Assembly (NCBI GenBank): GCA_008330645.1
Contig: VLTN01000034.1
Span: forward strand, 336,300-400,299
DNA from: Cafeteria roenbergensis
Lineage: Eukaryota > Sar > Bigyra > Bicosoecida > Cafeteriaceae
DNA length: 64,000 nucleotides
Direction of reading: 5' to 3'
Positions 23,901 through 64,000 of this stretch are shown piece by piece; within the stretch, counting starts at the first letter, position 1; every line of letters starts with the position of its first letter. A program made the translations under genes and the position numbers. The notes below the pieces were generated by a model. It worked only from the letters and a program-made list of their open reading frames with translations. It was not told the origin of the DNA and did not search any database.

Positions 23901-24232
23901 CCTTGGAGGCGGGCGCTTGTCCCCGCTGCTTGTCAGCCGCGCGAAGAGCGCAGGCGAAGCGTGCCGCTTCGGGTGTTCTCGCGAGCGCGCAAGTTGAATC
24001 GCTTGTGACCCACGGAATACTTGCGTCCGCGCGTACATTGCGGGAGGCGCGACGCGTTCCGCTGCAGAGCGGGACTGCCGCACGGCCGGCGGACCCACCC
24101 AGCAGTCGGCCTGACGCCGCTGGGCGGTTCGTAGGGCGCCCTCGCTTGCACGTGTCGAGCGCACTGCGCTGGGGAGCTTGCGCTGCCCGAATCGCGAGCG
24201 CTTTGGCCTCGGGCCGCGCGCGTTTCGCTTTC
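23901..24232. promoter_or_regulatory. Shared divergent promoter region
   Basis: 332 bp separate the start codons of the alpha-glucosidase gene (minus strand) and the TBCE-like gene (plus strand). Both promoters and 5' leaders must lie here or the region must act in both directions. No TATA-like box is evident. The placement is by gene layout only. Confidence 0.5.
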
Positions 24233-27375: not shown

Positions 27376-29004
27376 ATGATTGAGCGCGGCACCTTCGCTG
27401 AGACCACGACGCATCTGCTGTCCAGGCTCTGGGACAAGAATTGCCTGGTCGACGTGAGGCCGGCTTGACACGTGGAGCGCGTGCTGAAACAACGGGACCT
27501 GGCGGCGGTCAGCAGCAGCCAGGGGGGCGAAAGCCCTGAGCAATGGACACGATCCGGTCCGGCAGCTCCGCGCACGGGCCGCGCGGTGCGGCGCGGCGTG
27601 GCGTGGCGTGGAGCAGAATCACGAGCGAGCAAACAGCAGCAGTCCCAATCGCCAGCGACCGTGTGCACCGCACTTCGCAGGGGCACGACACGCTGCTTGG
27701 TCTAGCTGCCAGGCACAACGAGTTGGCAATCGTGGCGAAGCTGTGCAGTCTGGACGGCATCTCCCTGGAAGCGACCGACCTGGTGAGCCAGGCGCGATCG
27801 GCTTGCCAGGAGTGGCGATCATGTGCTGAGGCAATCGCCGTGTTGTTCCATCCAGCTCGCGTCGGTGTTGCTGCCCAAGGGCGACGCAGGAAGGAAACAC
27901 GCCGCTGGCCATCGCCGCGAGCCGGGGGCATACTGAAGTCGTGAAGTACCTCATTGGCCAGGGAGCTAACCGCCGTGCGGTGAATGATGTGAGCTGCCAG
28001 GATCTCGAAGCTAATTTTTTTGCTTCGCGTGCCGGCCAAGGCCACGCATCGCTCAGGGGCGATGCTGCCGCTATGGAACGCAGGCAGGCTACCAGCCCAT
28101 CCACCTGGCCGCTCGGCATCACGTGGAAACTGCTCTCGCCATGATCATTGACCGTGAAGACACGACAGCGGTTGTGGCCAAGCCCGCAACCCTCAGCATT
28201 CTCTGGCGGCAATGCGCGCAGCAGGCCCGCCCAGTCTCTGCCTTCGTGCCCTGGCTTCTCGCCCATTGCGGTCTTGCCGGACCGATCAGTTTGGGGCATA
28301 CGCAAGGGCAATTGCCTGACATGGGGCCTGATCGGGAAGATGCTGACGAAGCTGCGCGGACCATTGCCCCCTCTCCCACTCACCTGCTTGGCGATGCCGA
28401 GGGCGGTGAAATCAAAGAAGAGGCACCTGCCTCGGACGCGGAGCCCGCCGCCGCCGCTGCCATGGAGCTCCTCGACTGCGACGCGGCGCCGCTCGGCGGC
28501 AACTCCGAGGCGGTGGCACCTGCCCCGGACGCGGAGCCCGCCGCCGCCGCTGCCGTGGAGCTCCTCGACTGCGACGCGGCGCCGCTCGGCGGCAACTCCG
28601 AGGCGGTGGCACCTGCCCCGGACGCGGAGCCCGCCGCCGCCGCTGCCATGGAGCTCCTCGACTGCGACGCGGCGCCGCTCGGCGGCGACTCCGAGGCGGT
28701 GGCGCCTGCCCCGGACGCGGAGCCCGCCGCCGCCGCTGCCATGGAGCTCCTCGACTGCGACGCGGCGCCGCTCGGCGGCGACTCCGAGGCGGTGGCACCT
28801 GCCCCAGACGCGGAGCCCGCCGCCGCCGCTGCCATGGAGCTCCTCGACTGCGACGCGGCGCCGCTCGGCGGCGACTCCGAGGCGGTGGCGCCTGCCCCAG
28901 ACGCCGAGCCCGCCGTCACTGCTGCTGAGGAAGATTGCTCGAAGACTGAGCTGGACGAAGAGGCTCGTCGCTTGGCTGACTTTCTGCGCGATTTGGCTGA
29001 GTGA
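27376..29004 (+). CDS. Ankyrin-repeat protein with a C-terminal 31-residue tandem repeat
   Basis: Four exons join in frame to 399 residues: 27376-27453, 27681-27782, 27890-27988 and 28084-29004 (introns of 227, 107 and 95 bp). All joins are phase 0 with donors GTGAGG, GTGAGC and GTGAGC and acceptors TTCGCAG, GACGCAG and AACGCAG. Exon 1 gives MIERGTFAETTTHLLSRLWD. Exons 2, 3 and the start of exon 4 each encode one ankyrin repeat (DTLLGLAARHNELAIVAKL; GNTPLAIAASRGHTEVVKYL; GYQPIHLAARHHVETALAMI). The rest of exon 4 is an acidic Ala/Pro tail with five copies of a 31-residue unit containing AMELLDCDAAPLGG, ending in DFLRDLAE. One ankyrin repeat per phase-0 exon is the same design as the cassette gene at 56.75-59.56 kb. 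It is probably a protein-binding adaptor; partner unknown. An earlier first exon is possible. Confidence 0.75.
28430..28916 (+). repeat. 93-bp coding tandem repeat, five copies
   Basis: Five near-identical 93-bp units coding 31 residues (core AMELLDCDAAPLGG, then EAVAPAPDAEP). Differences between copies are few (for example Asn/Asp before SEAV). It is entirely within the last exon of the ankyrin gene, in frame. Confidence 0.95.
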
Positions 29005-35700: not shown

Positions 35701-38700
35701 TGTGGTCGGGCGGCTGCGTGGTGGGGTCGATCCTGTTCGGATACGGGAGTACCATGGCACGCGTCGCCAGCCAGCGGTAGAGCGACCACCCGCGCCGACG
35801 TCGCTCTGCAGGAGTGATGGTCCTGGCGTCCCGCGACAAGATACCATCCCGGTCCGTGGAGGCGGCTCCCACGGCGCCCGACCATGCCGCGGCCGCCGCA
35901 GTGGATGAGTCCGCGTAAAAGGCGCCGCCGCCGCCTCCGCCGCCGCCGCCGCCGCCGCCAGCGCCCCCCGCCTGAAGCGACACGCCCGAGCGCTCCGACC
36001 ACCCAAAGGCGCGTGTCAGCTCTGCCACGCGGCCTTCGCGCAGGGCAGAGCCCCGCTGCCCCCCCCGCTTCAGGGGCGGAAGGATTGTCGGTTTCCCGAC
36101 GTCGCTCGACATCTCCGCGAGGGCGGGCGGGGTCGGACCCCACTCCCCGCCTGCCGCGTCGGGCTCCCAGGGCCAAGCGAAGCGCTGTTCCCAGCGCCGG
36201 CGGAGCCACTGCTCGGCAGCCTGCTTGGCTGAGTCACGGCGCATCAGCGCCGCTTGCTCTGCCGCCTTGCGTCGCTTGGACCGTTCTTCCGGGGATAGCC
36301 GCCCGGCCGCCCCGGCACCCCCCCCTCCGCCGCCGCCGCCGAAGGCGCCCCCTGCCAACCGGACCGCCTCCTCCTCCGCCTCTGCCTCGTCCCGCTGCAA
36401 GAACTCCTCGCAGTGGGCGTCGAGCGCCCGGCGTCTCTCAAAGAACGTCGCTCGGGCGCGGTCCCCTGCCAGCCGCAAGACGTCCTCATCCAGGAACTTG
36501 GACGATCGACCAAGGCGCAGCGCCGCGTCGCCGGCCACCGTCGCCGCGGCCACCGCGCCCAGCACCACCACCGTGCAGGCAATTCCCACGCCTGCGTCCA
36601 GAGGGTCGGCCAGCATCGTGGCGACCAGACCCCACAGCAGGGCCAGCCCCCACGCCGCCACCGCGTCGGCCGCCGCCGCGCTGAACGGAATGAGCTCGCT
36701 GGTGGCTGGGTCCAGCGCGTACGCCGGGAAGAGGAAGGGCGAGACCATCACTCTGGCACCGGGCGGCAGAGCCGACAGAGCCGACAGAGCCTTGGCGACG
36801 AGGAGGAGGACGAGGAATCCAAAGGCGATGCTGATTGCGAAGAAGATGTCCACGTCTGCGAGCAGCCCCACCACGACGCTCAGACAGGCGCAGGCCACGA
36901 GCAGCGACCCGGCGTAGGTGGGGTGGGGCTCCGGGAGGAAGAAGCCGTTGCGAACCCATACCCGCGCAAGGTAGGTTGCGTAGGCTGCAAAGACGACCAG
37001 GACTAGCAGGATGGCGCCGGCCGTGTAGCTGACCCAGCCGAACACCGCCAGAACGGCGACAAGCCACAGCGGCAAGGCCACTGCGAGGCCGTAGCGCGTC
37101 ACTGGCGGCATGAACCACTGGTTGTCGGGCCACGCCGCGAACGCGCAGACAGTGAGCAGGACAAGCGGCCACCCGAAGCCGCCGAGCGCCAGGTACACCG
37201 CGGCCGGGGCGGAGGCGTCGCCGTTGAGAGGGCCGAGGAACAGCCCCAGGAACAGCCCCACGTGGATCAGCGCCCCCCCCGCCAGGTACACCACGACGTC
37301 GGCAGAGAGCCGGTAGCGCTGGAACAGCTTGACGAGCGCCATGCCGCTGAGCAGCAGGCCGAGCGGCAGCGCGTACAGCACGTGCCCGAGCCAGACGGAC
37401 TCCACGGTGGCCAGCACCAGCCCGCCGTAGAGGCACAGCAGGACCACCAGGCCCAGCAGCGACGCCAGCGTGGCGTAGTCGGTGTGCGTCAGGAACCCCG
37501 CCACGAACGCGTCCCACGCCCCCACCGCCTTGGGATCGCTCATCTTGGCAAGCCACTTGGCGTAGCGCTGCTTCAGGGAGAGCGCCCCTGCCTGCTTGCG
37601 CCGATGCGCCTCCGCCTCCTCCGGGGAGCGGTTTCGCGCGGCCTCCTCCTCGGCGGCGGCAGCAGCGGCCGCCGCCGCATCCTCCTCGTCCTCCTCCTCT
37701 CCGCCGCTGAGCCCCAGGTCGCTGTCGTCGTCGCCGGCGCCAAGCGCGCCCGCACCTCCGAGAGCCAGCGCACCGGGCCGGCCCTTCTTTCCGCCGAGGT
37801 TCTGAGCCGCGGCCTCGGCAGCCGCCTGCCCGTCCGCAACGGACAGGTCGAGACCCCCGCCGCGCTTGGCTGCCGCCTCCGCCCGCGCCGCCTGCGCCTC
37901 TGCCCGCGCCGCCCGGCGCTGTTCCCGCAGCACCACCCCCACCGGAACACCGCGCTCCGCCGCCTCCGCCTCCGCGGCTCTTGCCTTGACCGCCGCCCTG
38001 AACTCCGGGGACAGGGACTGCCGCATGGAGGCGGGCTGGAGGAGGCTGTAGTCGTTGGCAACCCACTGGGTCACCACCTTGAGCAGGAGGCCGAGCAGCA
38101 GCGGCAGGAAGGCACAGGACAGCAGCACCAGCGGCGACTCCAGCACCGCGAACAGCAGCACCCCCGCCAGCAGAAGCAGCACCTCTGCCGAGACCGCCAG
38201 CACCAGCGGCACGGAGCAGGCGCGGAAGCAGAGGAACCCCTGAAGCTTGAGCAGGCCCCGCCCCTGCAGGTAGAGGGCGCGGGCGGTTGCCAGGGCCAGC
38301 CCGAACAGAGCGACGAAAATGAGAGACACGATGCCAACCACCCAGTCAGCCACAACAGTCCCGCCAATGTCGATGGCGGCGTGACCCGCCGAGTCCGTGG
38401 TCAGCTGACTGGAGGCTGCAAACGCCGGGGACGTGTCGTCGGTGGCCACGAAACCAGGAGCCGACGCCGGCTGCGCGCTGGCCAGCGCATCGCTCACTGC
38501 CAGCGACACCGACGCGGTCCCACCGGCTGCAGCGGCGGCTGGGTCGGCCCCCGTGAACACGGCGGCGAGCAGAGTCATGACAAATAGGATGCTCAAATAG
38601 GCCAGCACGAACTCCGGACTACCGGACATATCTAGGCGGCGAGCCTCCTGCTCCGCCGTCTCCTTCAGATCCGCGCCAGCCCGCCCCGCCCCGCCCAGCC

Positions 38701-39817
38701 TTGACCCGGGCCTGATGGACCCTGCCTTGGAAGCGCCGGCGCCGGCGCGACCGCCGCTCCGCGCGGCGGCTGCGCGTGACCCCGGCCTGCCCGCCGCCCG
38801 GCTAAACGAAATGCCGATGCGCGGCTTGTCCGCGTCAAGGTATGCGATGGCGCCCGCGGCGGCGGCGGACAGCCGCGGCAGAGCCCTCCCGACGATCTGC
38901 ACCGCTAGCGCGCCCCCCCACATGGCAAAACAGAGCGACGTGCCCACCAGCCACAGCCGCCCCGCGAACAGCGCCACCAGGCCGCGCGAAACCGCCATGA
39001 GCGCGCAGATGGCGCCAGGCGACCACTCCACCTTGCCGGAGCGCAGAGCGAAGAACACCACGCTGTCACCCGCCAGCACGGTGAGAGACGCCGCAATCCC
39101 CGCGTTGGGCGCCCCTCGCACGTGAGCCCAGGACACCACGCTCAGCACAAACAGGCAGAGCAGCGACGCCACGTACAGCAGCTTCAGCGTACGGGCGCGG
39201 TTTCGCCGCTCCGCAGCCTCGTGGGCCCGCGCCACCGACCGCGCGTCCGCCTTGGAGCCGGCGGCGGCGCCGGGGGCGTTGCTGGACCCGGAGGAGGCCA
39301 GGAGCCCGCTGAGCGGGTCGCTCAGCGCAAACACTCCCCCTGCTGATGCCGCGTTGATGGTGTACGCGGTGCCAAGCAGCGACGCCAAGGCGCTTCCCGC
39401 GCCGCCGTGCCTGGCAGAGCCGTCGGCAGAGCCGTCCTCGTCTCCCGTCCGGCCGCCAGCGGGGCCGTCCTCGTCGGCCCCATCGGCCGCCAGCGCCGCC
39501 GCGGCGGAGGCGTGATCGTCGATCCCAAGCCAGGGCTTGGAGTTGACCAGGTCTCGCATCTGCTTCGCCACGGCGCGCAGTCGCGCATCGCTCATTCCCT
39601 CGAAGCCCGGGGCCTCTTTGAGAGACGCCCAGGCCTCCTGCGCCTCCAGAAACGCCCCCCCCTCGCTGCCCCCGACGCCGCCGAACCCGCCGGCAGAGCT
39701 GGGAAAGCCGCCCCTGTCGTCCTCGGTCACGCGGGCGGAGCTGCCCGGCCCTGCGTCGGGCGCCCCGCCGAACCCACCGCCGGCAGAGCCTGGCGTGTCG
39801 GCCCCCGCGCCCGGAGT

Positions 39818-39850
<33 letters not shown>

Positions 39851-42240
39851 CGGGGTTGCGACTCCCGCGCGCAGCCGCTGCAACAGCCCCATCTTGCCCA
39901 TTGTGGCGAGGCGCCGGCGGGCCTTGCCGATGCGGCGATTGCGGCGTGACGTGGTGGCGATGGAGTCGAGACTGGTCCTCAGGCCGGGGTCGGCGTGGAA
40001 CGCCAGCCACACCAGCGGAAGCATGTTCAGCGTCAGCAGCACCGCGGTCAAACTAAACGCCGAAACGTCGAGAGGGTCGACGAACACGACGACGACCAGG
40101 TACGCCAGGACCAGCGCGAGGGACGTCCCGAAGAGCGAGAGCGTCGCCGCGTCCATGCGCCAGGCCGCGTGCCGCCACCGCCCCACGGCGAACGCCCCCA
40201 GCCACATTGCCTCCCCGACGAGGATGACGCCCCACCCCACCTGGGGCGGGCGAACCACCGCCGCCGTCACGATGCCGTGCGCGAGCGTGACCACGAGGGG
40301 GGCCCCCAGCAGGGCCCTGGCCAGGGTGCCTGCCCAAAACATGTTGCGGCGAAACTGCAGATTGCGGCTGGTCGCGCCGTGGGCGAGGAAGAGCGACGCT
40401 GTGAGCGACATCCGAGACCTGTCTTCCGCGCTGAAGGTCCCGAGCTGGCGGTTGACGTCGCGGGCCTCGGGGTGGGGCGGGTCCGGCAGGATGCGGGAGG
40501 CGAACCAGGCCTCAATTAAGGACGGGTCGTAGTTAATCTGGCGCAGAAATGACACCAGAATCAGAGCCAGAATCACGTTGGGGAGCTGGAACTCTATCAG
40601 CAGCTCGAGGAACTTGACGCGGTCGAACTCCTTGGACGGCACGGGGGGCAGCTCGTCGCTGTCCGGCACGTGCCGCACCACCACGGCGTACATGGCCGGC
40701 GGCTCAACGGCCGGATCCACCCCCTGCCTCGCCCCGTCCACCGTGATGACCGACCCGGGCGCGAAGCTCTTGTTGTAGGCTCGGTAGAGCGACGTCGTCT
40801 CCGTGGACACCAGGCCGCCCGGGGTGCCCACCGCCATGCGCACGGCCGGCCGCGTCGTCAGCTGCCACCCCGTGGCCGGCTGCAGCCAGGCGGGCTCCGT
40901 CGCTTCAAAGTCTAGCTGCCGCCGGAACACGAACACCACGGCGCGGAAATTTATGGAAAACGTCAAATATTCTGCGGGCAGGAACTCCAGGCGGTCCTGG
41001 TTGCGCGTTCGGACGATCATTCCCCCGCGGGCGGAGGCAAACTCCGGGTAGTTGGCGTCCACCTGGAGAACGCTCGACTGCGAGTAGATGAGACCCGACT
41101 GCTCGGAACCGAACGAGTTGGCCACGTCGACGATGCGTGGCATGTCCACGGCCGTGTCCTCGACCGTGACTGTGAAGGGAGTGACGCGGACGTCGATCTC
41201 CACGCAGGGGGCCCCAACGGACAGGCGCGACACGTTGCCGCTGACGTAGCAAGGCCGGTCCGCCTGCAGCGGGTAGAAGGCCCGCTCCGAGCACTCGGTG
41301 CCGGAGAACTGGGAGCAGGCGATCACCGCCGCGCCCACGCTCCCGATGACGTCATCATCGAATTCGAGGCCGGTGTCGGCGTCGAACAGCTGCACGGTGA
41401 AGGGCGTGCCGGAGTCGCGAACGCCAAAGTCCATGGCGTCCCCGCCCCCGGGCCAGACGGGGTTGTTGGAGTTGCGGACGACGGATGACACGCGCTTGAT
41501 GGCGCCGAGAGTGACCACCGCGTAGGGGTCAGACTCCCCGCTGATGGTGCCGAAGCTGTCCATCTGAGGCAGGTAGCGCGCTGACACGACCCTGACCGTG
41601 ACCCGACCGCCGACCCGGAAGTAGGAGGAGCAACGCTCGCTGCCGCGCGCCGCGTCGCAGGACATGGTGACGTACTCGGGGGCGCGGCAGAGCTGCTGGT
41701 TGCAGGGGCGGCTGCTGATGGGAGGCTCCCCGGGGCAGTTGGAGGCGTTGGTCAGCTGCGAGAGGGCGCGAGCGAGGCGGACCGGGCAGAAGCCCAAACA
41801 CGGAGCGCGCGTTGCGGGGCGCGGCACGGGGCGCGTTGCGGGGCGCGTTGCGGAGGAGTGGCACTGGCCACGCGGCATTGCCCAGGCGGAGCAGGCAAGC
41901 ATGGGAGCGCGACCCAAGCAGCGCCAGCGGCGGCGGCGCCAGCAGCGGCAGTGCAAGCCAACTGCAACAGCAGCAGAACTGGCAGCGGCAGCTCGCGGAT
42001 CCGGCCCAACAACACCAAAGGTCGGACAAGCGTGCGGGGGCTCACCAGGAGGATGCTGTCGCGGCAGTCGACGCTACGGTACTGCACGCCCCCGCCGCAG
42101 GGCCGGCTGCACTGGCCCCACTCGGTGGGCACCCACGCGGCAAAGACGAACGCCTGGGCCGCCGCGGGCTGCACGGCGCAGAGCGCGGCCAGCAGCACCA
42201 CCAGGAGCATCAGCACCCGGTTGGCGAGCCGCCTTGGCAT
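29773..42240 (-). CDS. TML-calpain (DEK1 type) with TSP1 and C2 domains; catalytic Cys and His lost
   Basis: Five exons join to 3764 residues: 42240-42046, 41755-34248, 33899-32666, 32516-32075 and 31688-29773. The summed length is divisible by three; donors are GTGAGC, GTGAGT, GTGAGA and GTGAGA, acceptors all CGCAG. The stop at 34244-34246 lies inside intron 2. Order: signal peptide (MLLVVLLAALCAV); TSP1 repeat split by intron 1 (WGQCSRPCGGGVQYRSVDC, then CNQQLC); C2 domain about 114-215; about 20 membrane helices with loops; coiled-coil linker; calpain protease core; calpain C2-like domain (FWKGPTAAGLPSRHNP, NPQFSLVLDRP); coiled coil; WW-like motif (WVEQTDPVTGRSYWYN; second Trp is Phe); 11-residue repeats. 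Membrane helices, linker, CysPc and C2L are the DEK1 order. The active-site segment reads LLQDNWFLSAV, so Cys is Asn (2811), and GLVFGAVYTV has Ala (3037) for His; Asn3057 (LRNPPG) remains. It is probably a non-proteolytic membrane sensor or scaffold. Confidence 0.82.
29776..30310 (-). repeat. 33-bp coding tandem repeat at the calpain C-terminus
   Basis: About sixteen copies of a 33-bp unit coding an 11-residue repeat (TADTPAAADAK, with variants AADTPAAADAK and TADTPAPADAK). It forms the last 175 or so residues of the calpain-like protein and runs to within a few residues of the stop. Confidence 0.95.
31818..31945. repeat. Intronic minisatellite of about 30 bp, four copies
   Basis: About four copies of a 30-31 bp unit beginning GCAGGCGGGGCACGGTCGCA, inside the last intron (31689-32074) of the calpain-like gene. 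Open frames crossing it on either strand are repeat artefacts. Confidence 0.85.
33900..34247 (-). other. Intron linking the membrane and calpain halves of the TML-calpain gene
   Basis: The donor at 34247 reads AACCG|GTGAGT, a textbook match, and includes the TGA that would otherwise end the membrane half. The acceptor reads GATCGCAG|C at 33900, nearly identical to the acceptor of the next intron (GATCGCAG|G). The phase is 2 on both sides (CG + C gives Arg). The calpain half has no in-frame ATG of its own near its start, which supports joining. RNA reads across 34248/33899 would settle it. Confidence 0.75.
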
Positions 42241-53260: not shown

Positions 53261-56200
53261 ATGTGTTTGTGCGTCCGCCACCACCACGAGGCTGCGCAGT
53301 ATTGCCTCTGGCCGGCAAGCTTCCTGGTCGCAGCAGAGCGACCGAACACATTTGAATCTTGCCGCGCCATCAGACATGCAGTTGACGAGGACTGCGGGAA
53401 GAGTCGAAAAACCTCTTGTCTGGCCTCCTTGTCAAAAAACTTCGATCCTTCAATTCGGACATTGAGGGCGGAGCACTGCTACGCTTCGCTCACCACCAGT
53501 GACTCCGCGGCGTCCATCAGCGCCCCATCTCTCGTGCCTGCCGTCATCTGGCCGGCGGGTCACGGCGCCGCGCTCTGCCTGCACGCTCCCGCCTCGGTCG
53601 GCGACAGAGGGCGCTGCCTCACCCGTCATGGCGTGATCTGGGCCCCGTCATGGGGACGGCGCGTCGACGTCAACCCTGGCCGCTGCGTGGCTCTGCCGTC
53701 CGGCAGGCTGCACGGGTCTGCAGCCGTCGGGTCACACGGGGCGTTCTGGGGCACGGGTGAGGCAGCTGATGGCCGCGTGACTGGCAGTGACGCGGTGCTG
53801 ACCGGCGCTGATGACGACGACACTCTGCCCGGGTGGGCGTCCTTCACTCCCCCGGCCCTGCCGGTGAAAGAATTGGCCAAAGCGGCTGCGGGCCGGTGCC
53901 GGCGGTTTCGGCAAGCCACGGCGCCCCGGCAGCCTGGCAGGCGCTGTGTCTGTGTGTTTTCGCGGAGGCCACCTCGCGGCTCTGCCGGGAATGGCGGCTC
54001 TGCCAGTACCTCCACGATCGAGTCCCTTCGTGGCGGTTCGTCGTCGTGGCTCTGCAGCTCGGTGGTTCCGGGCCACCGATGGACCCGTCTGTGGTCCGTG
54101 ACCCCGGGCGCCGTCGGTGGCGGCACCAGCGGCAGCAGCACTGTGGCCGATGGTCGATCAGCCTGGCTCTCAGCCATCAACGGCGGCAGCGGCGGAGGCG
54201 GCAGCGGCGCAGCTGGAGGTGGGCCAGCCGTCCATCACCGTCACGCGGCCATCAAGCGCGGGTCCCGTGCCGGTCTCATCGGCGACGCGTCCTCGAGCAT
54301 GGGAGCCGGCACCGCAGCCGGCGCCGCCGCAGCCGCGGCCATGGACTCAGTGCTGGGCCACCGGGGCCGCGTGCTGGACGGACCGCTCGGACTCGCCGCA
54401 CTGGTGTCGGCGGCGCCGTGGGCCGCTGCCTGCGGGCCGATGGACCCGTGCGACTCTGGCGCCGAGGAGGGGGGCATCGGCAGAGCCGGCTCTACCGGAC
54501 CGCCTACATCACTCGCGCCGCTGGCTCCGGGGAAGCATTCCCCCGAGGTGGTGCTGGGCTGCGGCTTCGCGGACGGGGCCCTGCGGTGGTCGCGCACGGA
54601 CGGCAGAGCTGCCGACGGGGCGGGAAGTGGGCCGGCCAGCGACGCGGCTCTGCCGGGGCTGCTGGCGCCCGGCTCTGCCACGGCCGTGGGCTCCACGGGC
54701 GACGGCACGCTGGTGTGCTTCGGCACGGCGTGCGGCGCAGTGCGGCTCTGCCGGTCGGTGAGCGACGCGGCCCGAGCGACGCCGTGGCTGCGGGGCCGGA
54801 CCGTGGGCGCCGAGTCGCTCAGCGGTGGAGCCGACTTCGGGCTGGGCGGCTCTGCCGACGGTCGGCCGGCGGGGCTGGCAGAGCAGGAGTGCCACGAGAT
54901 GGACGAGGCGGGTGCAGAGCCGCGAGGCGGGTCGCTGACGAGCTCTGCCGTGAGGGCTGCGGCTCGGGCGGGAATCGCTCTCGGCGTCTCTCAGGCGCGA
55001 TCAGCCTACGCCGAGGCGTCGGCTCTGCTCTCGGGCTCTGCCGGGGCGGGCGGCCTGTCAAAGACGGGGCAGGGCGGCGGCTGGGCGCGGTCTTGCGCTG
55101 ACGTGGCGCCCGGCCCGGCGACGGGCGTTTGCTTGGCCGTCATCAGCGGTTTCGCGACGGGGCATCAGTGCCCCATCACGGCCGTGTCGCTGAGCCGCAG
55201 CGCCAACGCGGTTGCAGTTGGTGGTGCTGATGGGCGCGTGATGGTGGGGCCGCTGACGGACATGAGGGTCCACCGCGTGCTCCGCACCGCCCCTCCTGAT
55301 GCGGCGTTGCTGGCAGCGGCGCTGCTGGCGTATCCCGGTCAGCAGGCCATCGCGAGCGCATCAGCGGCGGGTCACCTCGTGGCGGGGCTCGCAACGGCGG
55401 CAGCACCGGCGACGCCGGCTGATGCCGGAGCGACCGGCGACGCTGTCGCTGCTGCGGCCTGTGAACGGGACAGCGGCGGCGGCGCCGTCTCGATGAGTCA
55501 GCAGGGCATCGCTGTCCCATCCGCTGCGGCAGTGCTGGCGGCCTGCCCGCGCCCGCTCGGTGCCGTCACGACGGTCGCGGTTTCGCGTGCGGGGCTGGTG
55601 GTGGCGTGCTGGCGACGCGTCTCGCTGGTCTGCGGCTGGGACCTCAACGGCAACCTGATGGCAGCGCGTCGCGTGCCAGTCACCCTGACGACGGCCATCA
55701 CGTGCCCTGGAGACGGTGAAGCCGCCGTTGGCAGGCACGGGTCGGGGCACGCTCGTGGTGCTGGCCACCCTGGACCTGTCGTTGCGCCACGAAGTGGCGG
55801 TTGCCGGCGCCGGCATGGGGGCAGGCATCGCCCAGAGCAGCGACAGCGCCAGCCGCAACCGCAACCGCAACCGCAGGCATGACCGCTCCGCCAGCAAGGA
55901 GTCGACGTCGCGTCACGGCAGGTCGACGCCCGACCCCGCCACTCCGCGCGGGGTGGGCGGCGGCGCAGTGGGGCGGCAGAGCTCTCGATCCAGGGCGGCG
56001 ACGGCGGCGGCTGTTGGTGGGCGTTGCGGGCTCCGGCGGTGCCGGCAGCGGCGCTGCTGGTGCTGCTGACGACAGCGGCAAGCGCGGCGGCGGTGGTGGC
56101 GGCGGACGTGGCGGCGGGGGCATGTTCGGCGTGCTCGGAAGGCTCTTCGGAGGCGGAAGCGGCAAGGGGGCGGGGCCCGGCTCTGCAGGGGCCGGCACTG

Positions 56201-56431
56201 CGGCTGCTGCTGACGCGCAGCTGTGGATGACGGTGGCGGGCACGGATGCGGTGTCGGACGCGGCGTCCAACGGGAACGCCACTCCTGGCCGCTGCTGGCG
56301 CATGCGACGCGGCCGAGGCACCGCTCGTTGTCGCTCGTCTGGTCAAGGCGGCAGCCTGGAATGCATCGCAGGCGAGAGAAGCTGAGCCGCGAGGAACTTG
56401 TGTGCTGGCGCGGGGCAGCGTGACGCCGTGA
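53261..56431 (+). CDS. WD40-repeat protein (BEACH-type C-terminus), copy 1; reading frame changes three times
   Basis: One frame is open from 53261 to about 55730 and shows degenerate WD40 blades: EVVLGCGFADGALRWSR, TAVGSTGDGTLVCFGTACGA, HQCPITAVSLSRSANAVAVG followed by GADGRVMVGPL, and AVTTVAVSRAGLVVA with WDLNGNLMAA. The last two resemble the closing blades of BEACH proteins such as neurobeachin and LYST (AVS...G.IV...LYLW..NG.L.A). Coding character then moves to the next frame (GRGTLVVLATLDLSLRHEVA), to a third near 56000 (GGMFGVLGRLFGGGSGKG) and back to the first near 56290 (AEAPLVVARLVKAAAWNASQ), ending at 56431. No BEACH domain is seen. The true start is unclear; residues before about 53480 look non-coding. 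It is either a gene with very short introns or one with frameshifts. The part from 54195 on is repeated downstream. Confidence 0.45.
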
Positions 56432-56990
56432 GTGCAAGGCTGGCGGTGCGGCTCGGCTCCGCAGTCGCTGCAGCGACCAGTCGTGTCTCCGGACCGCGTT
56501 CGGTGTGACTGTTGGAGGGTTGACCGGGCCTTGCCGCCGTGAGTGGGCGGAGCTGGGCTGGGCAGTGTGGCGGCGACAGGCAGACACCACGCGCGACGCG
56601 GCTCAGCACGGACTGGTGCTGCCCCGCCGCCGGGTCGGGCGGTGGAATGCGGGCGAGCTTGACGTCGCGGCGCGGCGGGAGCCTGATCAGCCACGCGAAT
56701 ATGCACACAGACACGTGGTTCGCACGGCACGTGGCAGCCGTGCTGTGGGACGGTCAGAGCAGCTGGGCCAGGTCCTCGAGCTGCTTCACGCGGGCTTCGA
56801 GCGCTGCCATGGCGGCCACCGTGGCGGTGCGGTACGCTTGCGCGGCGTCGGCTTGAGCGTCCATCTCGGCCTGCTTGGCGGCCAGCGCCTTGGCACAGCC
56901 AGCCTGCGCCTCCTCCAGCTCGGCCTGCTTGGCGGTCAGCGCCTCGGCACAGCGCGCCCGTTCTCGCTCTCGAGCGCGCCTCGTGTTTCT
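54195..56990. repeat. Segmental duplication, copy 1
   Basis: This block is repeated almost base for base at 61119 to the window end, in the same orientation, offset 6919-6925 bp. It covers the WD40 C-terminal half on the plus strand and the 3' end of the ankyrin/coiled-coil gene on the minus strand. The left edge lies in a GGC-rich run (GGCAGCGGCGCAGCTGG against GGCAGCGACGCAGCTGG). Confidence 0.95.
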
Positions 56991-59557
56991 CTAGGATCTG
57001 CGGCACAAGCGCCTTCAAGTGCTCAGCCTTCACCCATTCCATTGCCGCTTTGCCTTCCTGCGACCAGCAGAGGCCAAGGGCGCGATCGCCAGATTGCAAT
57101 CTGGAACCGTCTGACAATGAAGGCGAACGCCATCGCTCGGTGGCCAGCGCACTCGCCCTCACATTATCCTTGGCCTCCAGGTCGGCGCCGCGGTCCAGCA
57201 GCAGCGCCATGGCCTCCACCTTGCCCCACCTGGCAGCCCGGATGAGGGCTGTGTAGCCATCCTGCAGCGTCCGAACACGCATGCCAGCCACGCCAGCACA
57301 CCCCATCGTCGACCACAGCCTCGCAAGCAACCGAAGCCCTCTCACGCCCCACACCCGCACCCGACACGCCGCTCCCCGGTGCGCGCTCCCGGCCCCGCCG
57401 CCCGAGCAGCGGGCCGGCCACGCTCAGCGCTGCAGCTGGCCGCATCGCGACCTCGGACGACGCCAGCGGGGCGACATGCCGGTGGCGCGGCCGATGAGCT
57501 GACCTTGTTCTTGGCCTCCAGGTCGGCGCCGCGGTCCAGCAGCAGCGCCACGGCCTCCACATGGCCACTGTAGGCAGCCCAGATGAGGGCTGTGGTGCCA
57601 TTCTGCAGCGTCCAAACACGCATGCCACCCACGCCAGCACACCCCATCGTCGACCACGGCCTCACAATCAACCGAAGCCCTCTCACGCCCCACACCCGCA
57701 CCCGACACGCCGCTCCCCGGTGCGCGCTCCCGGCCCCGCCGCCCGAGCAGCGGGCCGGCCACGCTCAGCGCTGCAGCTGGCCGCATCGCGACCTCGGACG
57801 ACGCCAGCGGGGCGACATGCCGGTGGCGCGGCCGATGAGCTGACCTTGTTCTTGGCCTCCAGGTCGGCGCCGCGGTCCAGCAGCAGCGCCACGGCCTCCA
57901 CCTTGCCGTTCCGGGCAGCCCAGAGGAGGGCTGTGTAGCCATCCTGCAGCGTCCAAACACGCATGCCACCCACGCCAGCACACCCCATCGTCGGCCACGG
58001 CCTCACAAGCAACCGAAGCCCTCTCACGCCCCACACCCGCACCCGACACGCCGCTCCCCGGTGCGCGCTCCCGGCCCCGCCGCCCGAGCAGCGGGCCGGC
58101 CACGCTCAGCGCTGCAGCTGGCCGCATCGCGACCTCGGACGACGCCAGCGGGGCGACATGCCGGTGGCGCGGCCGATGGGCTGACGTTGTTCTTGGCCTC
58201 CAGGTCGGCGCCGCGGTCCAGCAGCAGCGCCATGGCCTCCACCTTGCCATTCCCGGCAGCCACGATGAGGGCTGTGTTGCCATCCTGCAGCGTCCAAACA
58301 CGCATGCCAGCCACGCCAGCACACCCCATCGTCGGCCACGGCCTCACAATCAACCGAAGCCCTCTCACGCCCCACACCCGCACCCGACACGCCGCTCCCC
58401 GGTGCGCGCTCCCGGCCCCGCCGCCCGAGCAGCGGGCCGGCCACGCTCAGCGCTGCAGCTCCCCGCATCGCGACCTCGGACGACGCCAGCGGGGCGACAT
58501 GCCGGTGGCGCGGCCGATGAGCTGACCTTGTCCTTGGCCTCCAGGTCGGCGCCGCGGTCCAGCAGCAGCGCCACGGCCTCCACCTTGCCGTTCCGGGCAG
58601 CCACCATGAGGGCTGTGTCGCCATTCTGCAGCGTCCAAACACGCATGCCAGCCACGCCAGCACACACCCCATCGTCGGCCACGGCCTCACAATCAACCCA
58701 AGCCCTCTCACGCCCCACACCCGCACCCGACACGCCGCTCCCTGGTGCGCGCTCCCGGCCCCGCCGCCCGAGCAGCGGGCCGGCCACGCTCAGCGCTGCA
58801 GCTCCCCGCATCGCGACCTCGGACGACGCCAGCGGGGCGACATGCCGGTGGCGCGGCCGATGGGCTGACCTTGTTCTTGGCCTCCAGGTCGGCGCCGCGG
58901 TCCAGCAGCAGCGCCATGGCCTCCACCTGGCCACTGTAGGCAGCCCAGATGAGGGCTGTGTAGCCATCCTGCAGCGCCCAAACACGCATGCCACCCACGC
59001 CAGCACGCCCCATCGTCGGCCACGGCCTCACAAGCAACCGAAGCCCTCTCACGCCCCACACCCGCACCCGACACGCCGCTCCCCGGTGCGCGCTCCCGGC
59101 CCCGCCGCCCGAGCAGCGGGCCGACCGCGCTCAGCGCTGCAGCTGGCCGCATCGCGACCTCGGACGACGCCGGCGGGGCGACATGCCGGTGGCGCGGCCA
59201 ATGGGCTGACGTTGCTCTTGGCCTCCAGGTCGGCGCCGCGGTCCAGCAGCACTCGCATCGACTCAACGTGCCCGTTTTGCGCTGCCCCCATGAGAGGCGT
59301 TCGCCCCGTTCTGCGCGGATGTACCACACAGCGACCGAGAGAGACTTCAATCAGCCGTCCCTGAGCTCCTCGTCCGGCCCTTCAAGACCCCCTACGACCC
59401 CAGCTCCAGCCCCGCAAGCGCCCGTGCTCACCCGATCTGCCCAGTTCACCGGCGCGCCCGCCTCCAGCAGCCTCGTCACCTCGCCCGTGTTCCCGGCCTC
59501 CGCGGCATCCAACAGCGCCTTCCCCATATCGGCATCGCTCATCGCGGCGGCGGCCAT
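56754..59557 (-). CDS. Ankyrin-repeat protein built from tandem one-repeat exon cassettes, copy 1
   Basis: Exon 1 (59557-59432) starts MAAAAMSDADMGKALLDAAE and holds a first ankyrin repeat ending GAPVNWADR. Then come seven cassette exons, each one 33-residue ankyrin repeat: 59310-59211, 58968-58870, 58625-58527, 58284-58186, 57943-57845, 57602-57504 and 57261-57163. All have acceptor CTGCAG except the first (GCGCAG); donors are GTCAGC, except GTGAGG for the last. Each is 99 bp and phase 0 at both ends, so any number can be joined; the first is 100 bp. The last exon (57057-56754) encodes GKAAMEWVKAEHLKALVPQI and a coiled-coil tail (AALEARVKQLEDLAQLL). Two joins do not close: an extra base in a GGGG run of the first cassette (about 59304-59307), and a one-base shift near 56960-57000 in the tail. 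These may be real damage or sequence error. It is likely a ligand-binding adaptor that oligomerises through the tail. Confidence 0.7.
57163..59310 (-). repeat. Tandem array of 341-bp exon-plus-intron units
   Basis: Seven exon cassettes are spaced 341 bp apart (one interval is 343 bp because of an extra CA). Each unit is a 99-bp ankyrin exon plus a 242-bp intron. Introns differ from each other by about 1-3%. Exons differ mainly in their first 54 bp; the last part, coding ALLLDRGADLEAK, is constant in all but the first cassette. Open frames that run through the introns on either strand are by-products of this array. Confidence 0.95.
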
Positions 59558-61118
59558 GGCCCCGACTGCGCAGGCTGTCGGGAGTGCGCCGCCGCGGGAG
59601 CGCCGAGCATCGGAGCAAGCCCTGGGCTCTGCCGCCGCGGAATGTCGCGCGATCGCTGAGTGATGCCCGCTCTGGCGGGAAGCACGCCTGTATCCCCCAC
59701 CGGAGCACCGCCGCTGGGCCATGCAGCACACATGCATGCTGCAGTTGATGTCGCGGGCGAGTGGGCGGGGAGCCGTCCGCGGCTGCCGGCAGCAGTGCTG
59801 CTTGCGGAGCGATTGCAGCCGTTTGCGCCCGCCTCACTCCGACCGCACTCGCCCCACCGCCCTCCACGCCATCTAAGCATAGGCACGTGATGTGCTCAGT
59901 GGCGCCAGTCTGGTCTGGGCGCAGGCGCGGCAGCCGGGCAGCATCCCTGCACCCATTCGAGCGGCCGAGCGGCCGAGCCGAACAAGCAACACACCCTCCC
60001 GCCGGCCACCGCCCAGCACCGATGACAGCGCTACTGCTCGGGAGGCGCCCCCCCGAGCAGCATAAAGAGCGATGGGGCGCGGGAGGCCTCCTCCCGGCCG
60101 CTCCAAGAGCCCTCGGCCAGCGCCCTCGCGGCGAGGCGTCCCTTCCAAGCCGCGGCTGGCCAAGCCACCCAGCTCGACCACGGCCTGCCACGCCGGACCG
60201 CCGACCTCCACGCCGGACACCGATGCCAACCACGAGCAGCACACGCACACACACACACAGCACTCGGGGCGCGCATGTGTGCGGGAGCCACAGTCAGTCC
60301 GCCGGCATGGCGAGTCGGCGCCTGTCCGAGTCGGCCGGCGGCTCGCGGCCAGGAGCGGGATCGCGCCGCTCCACGGCGGCGGTCGACATGCGATGCCGCC
60401 GCAGGTCACCTCGGCCGGCGTCGCAGCGCCCCGTCTCAGCGGCTGCGACTGCGCTCGGCGCTGCCACTCGCGGCAGGGCTGCGGCAGTCCGCCGCTCCTC
60501 GATCGGCCAGCGCGGCCCTCTCGAGGGAGCGCACCCGTGCCGTCCGGGGCGTCGCTAGCTGCCCCGCCGTCCTGTGGCTGTGCCGGTCGCACCGTGCACA
60601 GGATCCGGCCTGGTGCGGCGAGGCGTGGCTGTCCCCAGCAGAGGGGCTGATTGCAGCTCCGCGTCAGACCATGGCTGACCTGGCTGCAGGCGGAAGCAGC
60701 AGAGCCGGTCAGACGTCAATCGGCGCAGTCTTTCCCGGAGCTGGAGCCCGCCACAGCCAACGTCAGCAGGCCGGCGGCTGGGGCCGGATCGACGTCGCCA
60801 GCGGCGGCTGCGCCTGCGGCAGCGGCAGCGGCGGGTGCTGCCGACCCGCGCGGAGCCGCTGGAATCGCTGAGCCTGACGCGGAGTCGCTGGAGCGGTCAC
60901 TGACTAGCGGGAGCGGGGGCGGCGGTTCACGCTCCGGTGTCAGTCGTGGCGGCAGCCGCAGCGGGGGCGGCAGCGCTGGTCGTGGCGGAGGCCGTGACGG
61001 CGGCGCCGGTGGCGGCAGGGGTCCCGATGGCAGCCCGTTCACGGGGGACTCACGCCGGGGTCAGGGGAATGTCTCTCCGGCATCACCCGCCAGTCGTCGG
61101 GGGGTGCTGGCGGCGGCG
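59558..61118. other. Flank between the cassette gene and WD40 copy 2
   Basis: Upstream of the cassette ankyrin gene (minus strand) and of the duplicated WD40 block (plus strand). From about 60690 a plus-strand frame reads Ala-rich then Gly/Ser/Arg-rich sequence (AADPRGAAGIAEPDAESLER) and runs into the duplicated block, so it may be a replacement 5' part of copy 2. Nothing else is supported. Confidence 0.35.
60239..60262. repeat. (CA)n microsatellite
   Basis: A short CA run (ACACGCACACACACACACAG) in the non-coding flank upstream of the cassette ankyrin gene. Confidence 0.9.
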
Positions 61119-63350
61119 GCGGCGGCAGCGACGCAGCTGGAGGTGGGTCAGCCGTCCATCACCGTCACGCGGCCATCAAGCGCGGGTCACGTGCCGGTCT
61201 CATCGGCGACGCGTCCTCGAGCATGGGAGCCGGCACCGCAGCCGGCGCCGCCGCAGCCGCGGCCATGGACTCAGTGCTGGGCCACCGGGGCCGCGTGCTG
61301 GACGGACCGCTCGGACTCGCCGCACTGGCGTCGGCGGCGCCGTGGGCCGCTGCCTACGGGCCGATGGACCCGTGAGACTCTGGCGCCGAGGAGGGGGGCA
61401 TCGGCAGAGCCGGCTCTACCGGACCGTCGACGTCACTCGCGCCGCTGACTCCGGGGAAGCATTCCCCCGAGGTGGTGCTGGGCTGCGGCTTCGCGGACGG
61501 GGCCCTGCGGTGGTCGCGCACGGACGGCAGAGCCGCCGACGGGGCGGGAAGTGGGCCGGCCAGCGACGCGGCTCTGCCGGGGCTGCTGGCGCCCGGCTCT
61601 GCCACGGCCGTGGGCTCCACGGGCGACGGCACGCTGGTGTGCTTCGGCACGTCGTGCGGCGCCGTGCGGCTCTGCCGGCCGGTGAGCGACGCGGCCCGAG
61701 CGACGCCGTGGCTGCGGGGCCGGACCGTGGGCGCCGAGTCGCTCAGCGGTGGAGCCGACTTCGGGCTGGGCGGCTCTGCCGACGGTCGGCCGGCGGGGCT
61801 GGCAGAGCAGGAGTGCCACGACATGGACGAGGCGGGTGCAGAGCCGCGAGGCGGGTCGCTGACGAGCTCTGCCGTGAGGGCTGCGGCTCGGGCGGGAATC
61901 GCTCTCGGCGTCTCTCAGGCGCGATCAGCCTGCGCCGAGGCGTCGGCTCTGCTCTCGGGCTCTGCCGGGGCGGGCGGCCTGTCAGAGACGGGGCAGGGCG
62001 GCGGCTGGGCGCGGTCTTGCGCTGACGCAGCGCCCGGCCCGGCGACGGGCGTTTGCTTGGCCGTCATCAGCGGTTTCGCGACGGGGCATCAGTGCCCCAT
62101 CACGGCCGTGTCGCTGAGCCGCAGCGCCAACGCGGTTGCAGTTGGTGGTGCTGATGGGCGCGTGATGGTGGGGCCGCTGACGGACATGAGGGTCCACCGC
62201 GTGCTCCGCACCGCCCCTCCCTGATGCGGCGTTGCTGGCAGCGGCGCTGCTGGCGTATCCCGGTCAGCAGGCCATCGCGAGCGCATCAGCGGCGGGTCAC
62301 CTCGTGGCGGGGCTCGCAACGGCGGCAGCACCGGCGACGCCGGCTGATGCCGGAGCGACCGGCGACGCTGTCGCTGCTGCGGCCTGTGAACGGGACAGCG
62401 GCGGCGGCGCCGTCTCGATGAGTCAGCTGGGCATCGCTGTCCCATCCGCTGCGGCAGTGCTGGCGGCCTGCCCGCGCCCGCTCGGTGCCGTCACGACGGT
62501 CGCGGTTTCGCGTGCGGGGCTGGTGGTGGCGTGCTGGCGACGCGTCTCGCTGGTCGGCGGCTGGGACCTCAACGGCAACCTGATGGCAGCGCGTCGCGTG
62601 CCAGTCACCCTGACGACGGCCATCACGTGCCCTGGAGACGGTGAAGCCGCCGTTGGCAGGCACGGGTCGGGGCACGCTCGTGGTGCTGGCCACCCTGGAC
62701 CTGTCGTTGCGCCGCGAAGTGGCGGTTGCCGGCGCCGGCATGGGGGCAGGCATCGCCCAGAGCAGCGACAGCTGCAGCCGCAACCGCAACCGCAGGCATG
62801 ATCGCTCCGCCAGCAAGGAGTCGACGTCGCGTCACGGCAGGTCGACGCCCGACCCCGCCACTCCGCGCGGGGTGGGCGGCGGCGCAGTGGGGCGGCAGAG
62901 CTCTCGATCCAGGGCGGCGACGGCGGCGGCTGTTGGTGGGCGTTGCGGGCTCCGGCGGTTCCGGCAGCGGCGCTGCTGGTGCTGCTGCCGACAGCGGCAA
63001 GCGCGACGGTGGCGGGGGCGGCGGAGGCGGCGGCGGGGGCATGTTCGGCGTGCTCGGAAGGCTCTTCGGAGGCGGAAGCGGCAAGGGGGCGGGGCCCGGC
63101 TCTGCAGGGGCCGGCACTGCGGCTGCTGCTGACGCGCAGCTGTGGATGACGGTGGCGGGCACGGATGCGGTGACGGACGCGGCGCCCAACGGGAACGCCA
63201 CTCCTGGCCGCTGCTGGCGCATGCGACGCGGCCGAGGCACCGCTCGTTGTCGCTCGTCTGGTCAAGGCGGCAGCCTGGAATGCATCGCTGGCGAGAGAAG
63301 CTGAGCCGCGAGGAACTTGGGTGCTGGCGCGGGGCAGCGTGACGCCGTGA
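61119..63350 (+). pseudogene. WD40-repeat gene, copy 2, broken
   Basis: Nearly identical to copy 1 from the GGC-rich junction onward, but with two extra defects in the main WD40 frame. A TGC Cys codon of copy 1 (after ATGGACCCG) is TGA at about 61373-61375, and an extra C at about 62221 (CCTCCCTGATG against CCTCCTGATG) shifts the frame. Between these the blades are intact (EDG-like TAVGSTGDGTLVCFG, GADGRVMVGPL). The three frame changes of copy 1 near its 3' end are also present here at the same places. The upstream half of copy 1 is absent. It is probably a decayed partial duplicate. Confidence 0.7.
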
Positions 63351-63672
63351 GTGCAAGGCTGGCTGTGCGGCTCGGCTCCGCAGTCGCTGCAGCGGCCAGT
63401 CGTGTCGCCGGACCGCGTTCGGTGTGACTGTGGGAGGGTTGACCGGGCCTTGCCGCCGTGAGTGGGCGGAGCTGGGCTGGGCAGTGTGGCGGCGACAGGC
63501 AGACACCACGCGCGACGCGGCTCAGCACGGACTGGTGCTGCCCCGCCGCCGGGTCGGGCGCTGGAGTGCGGGCGAGCTTGACGTCGCGGCGCGGCGGGAG
63601 CCTGATGAGCCACGCGAATATGCACACAGACACGTGATTCGCACGGTACGTGGCAGCCGTGCTGTGGGACGG

Positions 63673-64000
63673 TCAGAGCAGCTGGGCCAGGTCCTCGAGC
63701 TGCTTCACGCGGGCTTCGAGCGCTGCCATGGCGGCCACCGTGGCGGTGCGGTACGCTTGCGCGGCGTCGGCTTGAGCGTCCATCTCAGCCTGCTTGGCGG
63801 CCAGCGCCTCGGCACAGCGAGCCTGCGCCTCCTCCATCTCAGCCTGCTTGGCGGCCAGCGCCTCGGCACAGCGAGCCTGCGCCTCCTCCATCTCGGCCTG
63901 CTTGGCGGCCAGCGCCTCGGCACAGCGAGCCTGCGCCTCCTCCAGCTCGGCCTGCTTGGCGGCCAGCGCCCCCTCCAGCTCGGCCTGCTTGGCGGCCAGC
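63673..64000 (-). CDS. Ankyrin/coiled-coil gene, copy 2, 3' end only
   Basis: The last exon of a second cassette-type gene, running off the window. The stop at 63673-63675 matches that of copy 1 at 56754. The frame encodes a coiled coil of 18-residue units (EEAQARCAEALAAKQAEM) followed by DAQADAAQAYRTATVAAM and the same LEARVKQLEDLAQLL end. At least four heptad-like units are visible against about two in copy 1. The ankyrin exons would lie beyond base 64000. Confidence 0.7.
   Translation of the reverse strand, partial: LAAKQAELEGALAAKQAELEEAQARCAEALAAKQAEMEEAQARCAEALAAKQAEMEEAQARCAEALAAKQAEMDAQADAAQAYRTATVAAMAALEARVKQLEDLAQLL
63785..64000 (-). repeat. 54-bp coding repeat in the coiled-coil tail
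   Basis: At least three to four copies of a 54-bp unit (core TGCTTGGCGGCCAGCGCC on the plus strand) coding an 18-residue coiled-coil unit. One unit near the window end is shorter. Copy 1 has about two such units at 56865-56960, so unit number differs between paralogues. Confidence 0.85.

What the first reader, a model, noticed from the sequence alone, without database searches (positions are those of the whole stretch)
57163..59310. Ankyrin exon cassettes diversify at binding-surface residues while their introns stay nearly identical
Seven 99-bp phase-0 exons, one ankyrin repeat each, lie in 341-bp tandem units. Exons 57943-57845 and 58968-58870 differ at 8 of 99 bases, all within the first 54, and all five changed codons change the amino acid. 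Two introns I compared (57944-58185 and 58969-59210) differ at about 6 of 242 bases. Exons 57602-57504 and 58968-58870 differ at 5 bases, none silent. The variable residues (before and after the first Gly, after TALI, and the two residues after AA) map to ankyrin positions 3, 5, 10, 13, 14 and 16. Several of these are the positions randomised in engineered ankyrin binders (DARPins). Higher exon than intron divergence, all replacement and on the ligand face, suggests selection for diversity plus homogenisation of the rest: a natural binder library in an adaptor gene.
Basis: partly seen in the sequence, partly recalled or inferred. Interest (0 to 1): 0.9.

Follow-up and report, generated by a model that had tools for sequence, protein, structure and literature searches.

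The report
Ankyrin exon cassettes with diversified binding faces
In a marine flagellate, genes built from repeated one-ankyrin exons have copied themselves while their binding-surface residues were pushed to change, much like known fungal and brown-algal recognition genes, though what they bind is unknown.

Summary
The window is taken to be Cafeteria roenbergensis strain BVI. A minus-strand gene (59557-56754) has an N-cap exon, one-repeat ankyrin exons and a C-cap/coiled-coil exon.

The pattern is genome-wide: a conserved exon 29-mer lies at 538 places, reversed control 0. At six codons taken from DARPin design, replacement divergence between disjoint same-array cassette pairs is about 2.9 times synonymous and 2.9 times intron divergence; in arrays fetched later, 2.0 and 2.4 times (33 pairs). 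It exceeds synonymous divergence in 29 of 30 arrays and intron divergence in 28 of 30.

Against a simple arms race: 12 presumed allelic cassette pairs are conserved (pN 0.020, pS 0.068). Presumed haplotypes do differ in cassette and gene number.

Best reading: soluble ankyrin binders diversified by duplication, unequal exchange and positive selection on the binding face. Close precedents exist (fungal NLR ankyrins, brown-algal LRR exons). Transcripts, ligands and any immune role are unshown.

The parts
59432..59557 (-). N-terminal cap exon (42 codons), half-ankyrin cap ending GAPVNWADR; donor GT begins at 59431
   Evidence: sequence; the same cap type stands upstream of 19 of 26 arrays
59211..59310 (-). 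first ankyrin cassette, 100 bp, out of frame relative to the 99-bp first cassettes of paralogs
58870..58968 (-). ankyrin cassette exon, 99 bp, phase 0
58527..58625 (-). ankyrin cassette exon, 99 bp, phase 0
58186..58284 (-). ankyrin cassette exon, 99 bp, phase 0
57845..57943 (-). ankyrin cassette exon, 99 bp, phase 0
57504..57602 (-). ankyrin cassette exon, 99 bp, phase 0
57163..57261 (-). last ankyrin cassette exon, 99 bp; followed by donor GTGAGGGC; a donor of the type GTGAGGGC also precedes the C-cap exon in C101, C18 and C7
57262..59210 (-). stretch with the six introns between the seven cassettes (242 bp, one 244 bp), 3-12 differences between any two; the internal near-neutral yardstick
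56754..57057 (-). C-terminal exon: C-cap (GKAAMEWVKAEHLKALVPQI) then coiled coil; the coiled-coil part is out of frame here, open in paralogs C18 and C7
63673..64000 (-). coiled-coil 3' end of a tandem paralog whose array would lie beyond the end of contig C34
   Evidence: contig ends at 400299 = window 64000

Best explanation
A family of soluble ankyrin-repeat binding proteins (N-cap, n exchangeable one-repeat exons, C-cap, sometimes a coiled coil). Units of one phase-0 99-bp exon plus one intron of about 200-255 bp duplicate and are lost by unequal exchange; this keeps introns and framework codons alike within an array. After duplication, selection favours replacements at the residues that form the ankyrin binding face, so each array presents a different surface. 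Shown: the arrays, their genome-wide spread, the excess of replacements at face codons over synonymous and intron change, core conservation, and cassette and gene number differences between presumed haplotypes. Inferred: splicing of all cassettes into one protein, binding of ligands, and that the ligands are varied biotic partners (prey bacteria, giant viruses or non-self) rather than the cell's own proteins.
For: Spread: 156 cassettes in 26 arrays on 9 contigs, 256 in 35 arrays after later fetches (one of the 256 is a cap exon), and 538 places for a conserved 29-mer, reversed control 0. Selection: pN over codons 1-18 exceeds intron divergence in 19 of 21 arrays, p = 8e-5. Disjoint pairs at six codons taken from DARPin design: ratio to pS 2.35-2.89 and to intron 2.56-2.98 in four versions, lowest bootstrap bounds 1.78 and 1.88. 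Arrays fetched later: 33 pairs from eight arrays, ratios 1.96 [1.56-2.56] and 2.37 [1.73-3.33]. Overall 29 of 30 arrays above pS, 28 of 30 above intron. Positions: entropy is enriched at the six DARPin positions, p = 1.9e-4; without residue 31, p = 3e-5, and p = 2e-4 for these five in later arrays. Silent share of single-base codon changes: 0.10 at the six DARPin codons (0.17 expected if blind), 0.09 at seven data-chosen face codons (0.20), 0.77 at nine core codons (0.33). Model of database protein P0029: block pLDDT 95-98 for residues 11-200. Turnover: in presumed haplotypes C63/C78 one gene has 6 and 7 cassettes, and a stretch of about 3.7 kb with a whole array lies in C63 but not in C78, between flanks that match in 250-bp windows at mostly 97-100% on one side and 86-100% on the other.
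Against: Twelve cassette pairs that I matched between C63 and C78 (presumed alleles) show pN 0.020, pS 0.068, intron 0.033: constraint, not diversification. Synonymous divergence in codons 1-18 also exceeds intron divergence in 16 of 21 arrays (p = 0.02), and over the whole exon pN exceeds pS in only 13 of 21 (p = 0.12). C63_186077 has no replacement at the six codons, and C103 lies below its very divergent introns; C60 is barely above pS (0.229 vs 0.226). The window's own gene has two frame breaks. No transcript, ligand or expression evidence for any single array was obtained.
Confidence: 0.62

Rival explanations
1. Functional partitioning without a biotic race: duplicated repeats were pushed to differ so that one scaffold can hold several fixed self ligands (or to avoid misfolding between identical repeats), after which each cassette is conserved.
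For: Presumed alleles of cassettes are conserved: pN 0.020, pS 0.068 over 12 pairs; five of seven aligned cassettes of C10/C129 differ at 0-2 bases, one of the other two is frame-shifted in C10 and one differs at 7. No recognition or signalling domain above Pfam cut-off in the one spliced protein and three database proteins scanned.
Against: 538 cassette-like places and 223 distinct repeat sequences among 256 seem more than a fixed set of self ligands would need (judgement, not a test); cassette and gene number differ between presumed haplotypes.
Confidence: 0.28
2. Neutral concerted evolution with relaxed constraint at surface residues.
For: Surface residues of ankyrins are generally tolerant (general knowledge); arrays duplicate and homogenise.
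Against: Relaxed sites should at most match synonymous and intron change; they exceed both by 2-3 times in disjoint pairs while core codons are conserved.
Confidence: 0.05
3. Targeted mutagenesis of the exon (hypermutation or retroelement-like) without selection for replacement.
For: Changes cluster: 393 variable sites in the six DARPin codons against 213 (sd 10.5) for random placement, and several codons have multi-base changes.
Against: Single-base changes at seven data-chosen face codons are silent in 9% against 20% expected for a blind process (p about 1.5e-4 by a rough binomial on weighted counts); at the six DARPin codons the contrast is smaller, 10% against 17%, and was not tested.
Confidence: 0.04
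4. Somatic repertoire by alternative splicing: symmetric phase-0 cassettes are skipped or chosen so that one gene yields many isoforms (Dscam-like; reported for brown-algal LRR exons). Compatible with the best explanation.
For: Cassettes found by the scan are 99 bp and phase 0, so any subset stays in frame; brown-algal ROCO genes show it (PMC11378527, section 11).
Against: No RNA examined; the one gene model compared, P0029, joins five consecutive cassettes in order.
Confidence: 0.12

Closest known systems
Fungal NLR ankyrin, TPR and WD repeats of high internal conservation (Podospora; Dyrka et al. 2014, PMC4986451)
   Same: Ankyrin repeats alike within a gene, repeat-number polymorphism, positive selection at concave-face positions (section 17 and find passages read).
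   Different: There the repeats sit behind NACHT or NB-ARC domains; here no such domain was found in the proteins scanned, each repeat is its own exon with an intron that serves as yardstick, and there is an N-cap and C-cap/coiled coil.
Brown-algal ROCO LRR genes with shuffled one-repeat exons (Zambounis 2012 as cited in Teng et al. 2024, PMC11378527; abstract and section 11 read)
   Same: One repeat per fixed-length exon in tandem, constant intron phase, positively selected residues on the concave side; also stramenopiles.
   Different: LRR (72 bp, phase 2) with ROC-COR GTPase there; ankyrin (99 bp, phase 0) without GTPase domain here; alternative splicing reported there, untested here.
Tetrahymena 90-bp-exon LRR arrays (Xiong et al. 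2019, PMC6564038; abstract and section 27 read)
   Same: Thousands of young genes with tandem one-repeat exons, proposed unequal crossing over, in a bacteria-eating protist.
   Different: LRR, phase 2; the authors say most such genes show purifying Ka/Ks.
DARPins (engineered ankyrin binders)
   Same: N-cap, 33-residue repeats, C-cap (PMC8683736 passages); variability at most of the positions that DARPin libraries randomise (positions recalled).
   Different: Natural, encoded by separate exons; positions equivalent to DARPin 9, 10, 16 and 20 also vary, while position 33 (exon residue 31) varies little.

Membership tests
Fungal-type NLR with HIC repeats | NACHT or NB-ARC (NOD) domain before the repeats | tested here: not met
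   Pfam scan of the spliced C18 protein and of P0029, P0125, P0013: ankyrin families above cut-off only; other arrays not scanned
Fungal-type NLR with HIC repeats | positive selection at concave-face positions | tested here: met
Fungal-type NLR with HIC repeats | repeat number polymorphism | tested here: met
   only between contigs presumed allelic, C63/C78; not tested between strains
Fungal-type NLR with HIC repeats | 85% identity over 100 aa of repeats | not tested
   only nucleotide differences were counted: 5-15 of 99 between window cassettes
Stramenopile one-repeat-per-exon recognition genes (ROCO/LRR type) | one repeat per exon of fixed length and constant phase | tested here: met
   99 bp, phase 0; the scans looked for 99 bp; one search also allowed 96 and 102 in four loci and listed 99 only
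Stramenopile one-repeat-per-exon recognition genes (ROCO/LRR type) | LRR repeats with ROC-COR GTPase | tested here: not met
   (four proteins)
Stramenopile one-repeat-per-exon recognition genes (ROCO/LRR type) | alternative splicing of the repeat exons | not testable with these tools
   no RNA data held
Ankyrin-repeat protein | 33-residue ankyrin repeats folding as a stack of paired helices | tested here: met
   Pfam PF00023 E = 2e-58; solved ankyrins and DARPins matched; model of P0029
Diversity-generating retroelement target | template/variable repeat pair with A-specific changes and a reverse transcriptase | not tested
   only a blind-mutation test was made

The most novel reading that the evidence does not exclude
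Probability: 0.17. Interest if true: 0.88.

Novelty: new variant of a known kind. Interest (0 to 1): 0.62.

Why it matters
The significance statement of PMC10945749 (seen in the listing) says that defence systems of single-celled eukaryotes against viruses remain unknown. This organism is the laboratory host of CroV and mavirus, so a candidate recognition repertoire is directly testable. The introns give an internal near-neutral yardstick, which makes the case for selection unusually clean for repeat proteins. If the cassettes bind foreign proteins, the arrays are a natural source of ankyrin binders and a further example, beside LRR exons, of one-repeat exons used for diversity.

Tried and rejected
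Considered and rejected: simple satellite DNA (ankyrin frame, GT/AG borders, face/core contrast); relaxed constraint; blind hypermutation. A single continuous reading frame was rejected because the 341-bp period is not a multiple of three and most window cassettes lie in frames of 140 aa. Identification by 18S was tried four times and never answered; the organism was found instead from a database protein on a contig of the same length as C63, plus the size and contig number of the BVI assembly. Exact exon sharing between arrays was sought as proof of exon transfer: of six shared exons five are C63/C78 presumed alleles and one is shared by two arrays of C78, so transfer between distant loci is not shown. 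Correlation of exon and intron distances within arrays is mixed (p below 0.05 in 2 of 11 arrays). A fold comparison with solved structures was not accepted. Other strains: only P0125 (FNF28) joined P0029 as a named Cafeteria protein among the 120 listed of 562 hits, and P0013 (FNF31) among the 120 listed of 7295; strain comparison was not possible. The DARPin positions (2, 3, 5, 13, 14, 33) and their register on the exon are recalled; PMC6796971 passages confirm six randomised and one partly randomised position per repeat, not their numbers. The six codons come from that design, but a codon profile of these data had been seen; leaving out residue 31 in the five-position test was my choice after that profile.

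Rows dropped: first cassettes; arrays with fewer than two usable cassettes (5 of 35); introns outside 225-262 bp or under 180 bp; cassettes without AG|99|GT or with stops, which hides frame-shifted ones such as C10:276630.

Full report
WHAT WAS CHECKED. The window is G000:C34:336300-400299, the last 64 kb of contig C34, in a genome of 36,303,456 bases and 167 contigs. A homology search with a paralog's spliced protein returned P0029, 'hypothetical protein FNF29_07236 [Cafeteria roenbergensis]', on a contig of 194,794 bases, the length of contig C63 here. The four-strain genome paper (PMC6972860; passages only, including part of Table 3) lists strain BVI with 170 contigs, 36,327,047 bp, 70.1% GC. 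I therefore take the genome to be C. roenbergensis (C. burkhardae in later papers) strain BVI; this is inference. The paper calls the organism apparently diploid and says that redundant contigs arose from high heterozygosity.

THE LOCUS. On the minus strand the gene reads: N-cap exon 59557-59432; a first cassette 59310-59211; six 99-bp phase-0 cassettes at spacing 341 or 343; a C-terminal exon 57057-56754 with a C-cap and a coiled coil. Paralogs on C18 and C7 are open in cap, cassettes and last exon; C101 also has a shifted coiled coil. Whether the window gene is decayed or the assembly is wrong cannot be told from here.

THE FAMILY. A scan for AG|99 bp|GT ankyrin exons in the first fetched stretches gives 156 cassettes in 26 arrays of two or more on 9 contigs. 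The same type of N-cap stands upstream of 19 of the 26; the coiled coil follows 5 of the 26 within 1 kb, several others show instead a short C-terminus of a second type (by eye). Later fetches bring this to 256 in 35 arrays, 223 distinct peptides (one of the 256 is a cap exon that passes the filter). A second subfamily has units of about 299-323 bp and repeats of the KDTVELLLDRGADLEAK type. A conserved 29-mer of the exon's second half is found at 538 places at up to 3 mismatches, the reversed control at 0 (counts whole, places listed in part). The intron borders are backed by one database gene model: P0029 joins the cap and five consecutive cassettes of C63 exactly at the predicted borders; its sixth part is read in another frame. 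The annotation used BRAKER trained with E4-10P transcriptome data; whether reads cover this gene is unknown.

SELECTION. Within arrays, pN in codons 1-18 exceeds intron divergence in 19 of 21 arrays (p = 8e-5) and pS of the same codons in 15 of 21 (p = 0.012); over the whole exon pN exceeds intron divergence in 17 of 21 (p = 0.006) but pS in only 13 of 21 (p = 0.12). In the window array pN(1-18) is 0.190, pS 0.069, intron 0.023. To avoid counting shared history, I formed disjoint cassette pairs by the similarity of one flanking intron and measured the exon and the other intron. At six codons taken from DARPin design (exon residues 1, 3, 11, 12, 31, 33; register and numbers recalled; a codon profile had been seen before) pN is 0.216-0.258, pS of the exon 0.080-0.092, intron 0.077-0.088; ratios 2.35-2.89 and 2.56-2.98 in four versions with 41-47 pairs. 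In nine arrays fetched after this test, pN at these codons exceeds pS in 9 of 9 (C60 barely, 0.229 vs 0.226) and intron in 8 of 9; 33 disjoint pairs from eight of them give ratios 1.96 [1.56-2.56] and 2.37 [1.73-3.33]. Over the 30 testable arrays of 35: 29 above pS, 28 above intron; exceptions C63_186077 (both) and C103 (intron only). Some of these arrays are presumed alleles of each other and so not independent.

POSITIONS AND MECHANISM OF CHANGE. Mean within-array entropy is highest at exon residues 11, 3, 7, 12, 1, 8 and 33 (20 arrays) and at 1, 8, 11, 12, 33 and 7 in the later arrays (9 arrays). The six DARPin residues are enriched with p = 1.9e-4; without residue 31, which varies little, p = 3e-5 and 2e-4 in the later arrays. 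In the AlphaFold model of P0029 (18-row alignment, block pLDDT 95-98 for residues 11-200) helices fall at exon residues 5-12 (5-11 in two repeats) and 15-23: the variable residues lie mainly in the loop and the first helix, while most of the second helix is conserved (residues 18 and 20 vary). That this is the binding side rests on known ankyrin structures and on PMC4986451. Single-base codon differences are silent in 9% at seven data-chosen face codons against 20% expected for a blind process (10% against 17% at the six DARPin codons), and in 77% at nine core codons against 33%. So neither relaxed constraint nor blind hypermutation fits well.

HOMOGENISATION AND TURNOVER. Introns differ by 7.3-7.6% within arrays and 26% between. 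The left end of C78 starts inside C63 (C78:1 to C63:174177, 94.2% over 13.5 kb; 95.6% over a further 4.1 kb), as expected for two haplotypes at overlapping contig ends. In 250-bp windows C78 runs along C63 to about 185.9 kb, then jumps to about 189.6 kb just before the start of the next array: about 3.7 kb of C63 with the array at 186077-187440 is missing from C78, as unequal exchange between neighbouring paralogs would leave it. The following gene has 6 cassettes in C63 and 7 in C78. C10 and C129 align at 99.0% over 2.2 kb, after which the best match ends.

EVIDENCE AGAINST. Twelve cassettes that I matched between C63 and C78 give pN 0.020, pS 0.068, intron 0.033; one pair supplies 8.5 of the 17.5 replacements and 7.5 of the 20.5 silent changes. 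Thus cassettes diversified as paralogs and are then conserved between presumed alleles. This weakens a continuous arms race and keeps functional partitioning alive. pS in codons 1-18 exceeds intron divergence in 16 of 21 arrays (p = 0.02), perhaps because silent steps are counted inside multi-hit codons (my inference).

COMPARISON. Dyrka et al. (PMC4986451, section 17 and passages read) report repeat-number polymorphism and positive selection on the concave face for ankyrin repeats of fungal NLRs. Teng et al. (PMC11378527, abstract and section 11 read) report one-LRR-per-exon shuffling, positive selection and alternative splicing in brown algae, following Zambounis et al. 2012 (not read). Xiong et al. 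(PMC6564038, abstract and section 27 read) report 90-bp LRR exon arrays in Tetrahymena. The present case joins the fungal repeat type with the algal exon design, without NOD or GTPase domain in the four proteins scanned. Prior description: searches for Cafeteria with ankyrin repeat and exon (9 papers, listing only), Cafeteria burkhardae with ankyrin (2 papers), ankyrin repeat with tandem exon, diversifying selection and alga (none) and ankyrin repeat with exon shuffling and positive selection (1 paper, listing only) showed none; 'ankyrin' does not occur in the main texts of PMC6972860 and PMC8547959. The expression study PMC7852580 (section 13 read) lists the ankyrin repeat domain among functions enriched in genes up in stationary phase (log2 0.75, adjusted p 0.026), without saying which genes. 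Subscription papers and preprints were not searchable.

VERDICT. A real, strong and genome-wide pattern of positive selection on ankyrin faces in one-repeat exon cassettes; a new variant of a known kind. The recognition function is plausible but unshown.

Noticed in passing
window 54000-57000 and 61000-64000: A block holding the 3' end of the ankyrin gene and sequence beyond it is repeated in tandem (seen by eye); the second copy runs to the contig end.
   Followed up: partly
window 20697-24230 (-): Long open frame with glycoside hydrolase family 31 domains and two trefoil stretches (Pfam E = 2e-84).
   Followed up: no
window 32414-33943 (-) and 34244-42073 (-): Calpain-type protease domain and, next to it, a very long open frame with a C2 domain.
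   Followed up: no
window 28422-28915 and 29783-30318: Tandem repeats with periods of 93 bp (5.3 copies, 97%) and 33 bp (16 copies), both multiples of three; coding status not checked.
   Followed up: no
window 20386-20578: A perfect 17-bp repeat in 11.4 copies.
   Followed up: no
L011 (C63:101481-105871): Array in which two cassette types partly alternate, as if pairs of units had been duplicated together; unit distance at lag 2 is only slightly lower than at lag 1, 0.073 against 0.080.
   Followed up: partly
C8, C14, C15, C60, C61, C88: Further cassette places with other spacings (about 310-315 and 607-616 bp) seen in the pattern search; C15, C60 and C61 were then fetched.
   Followed up: partly
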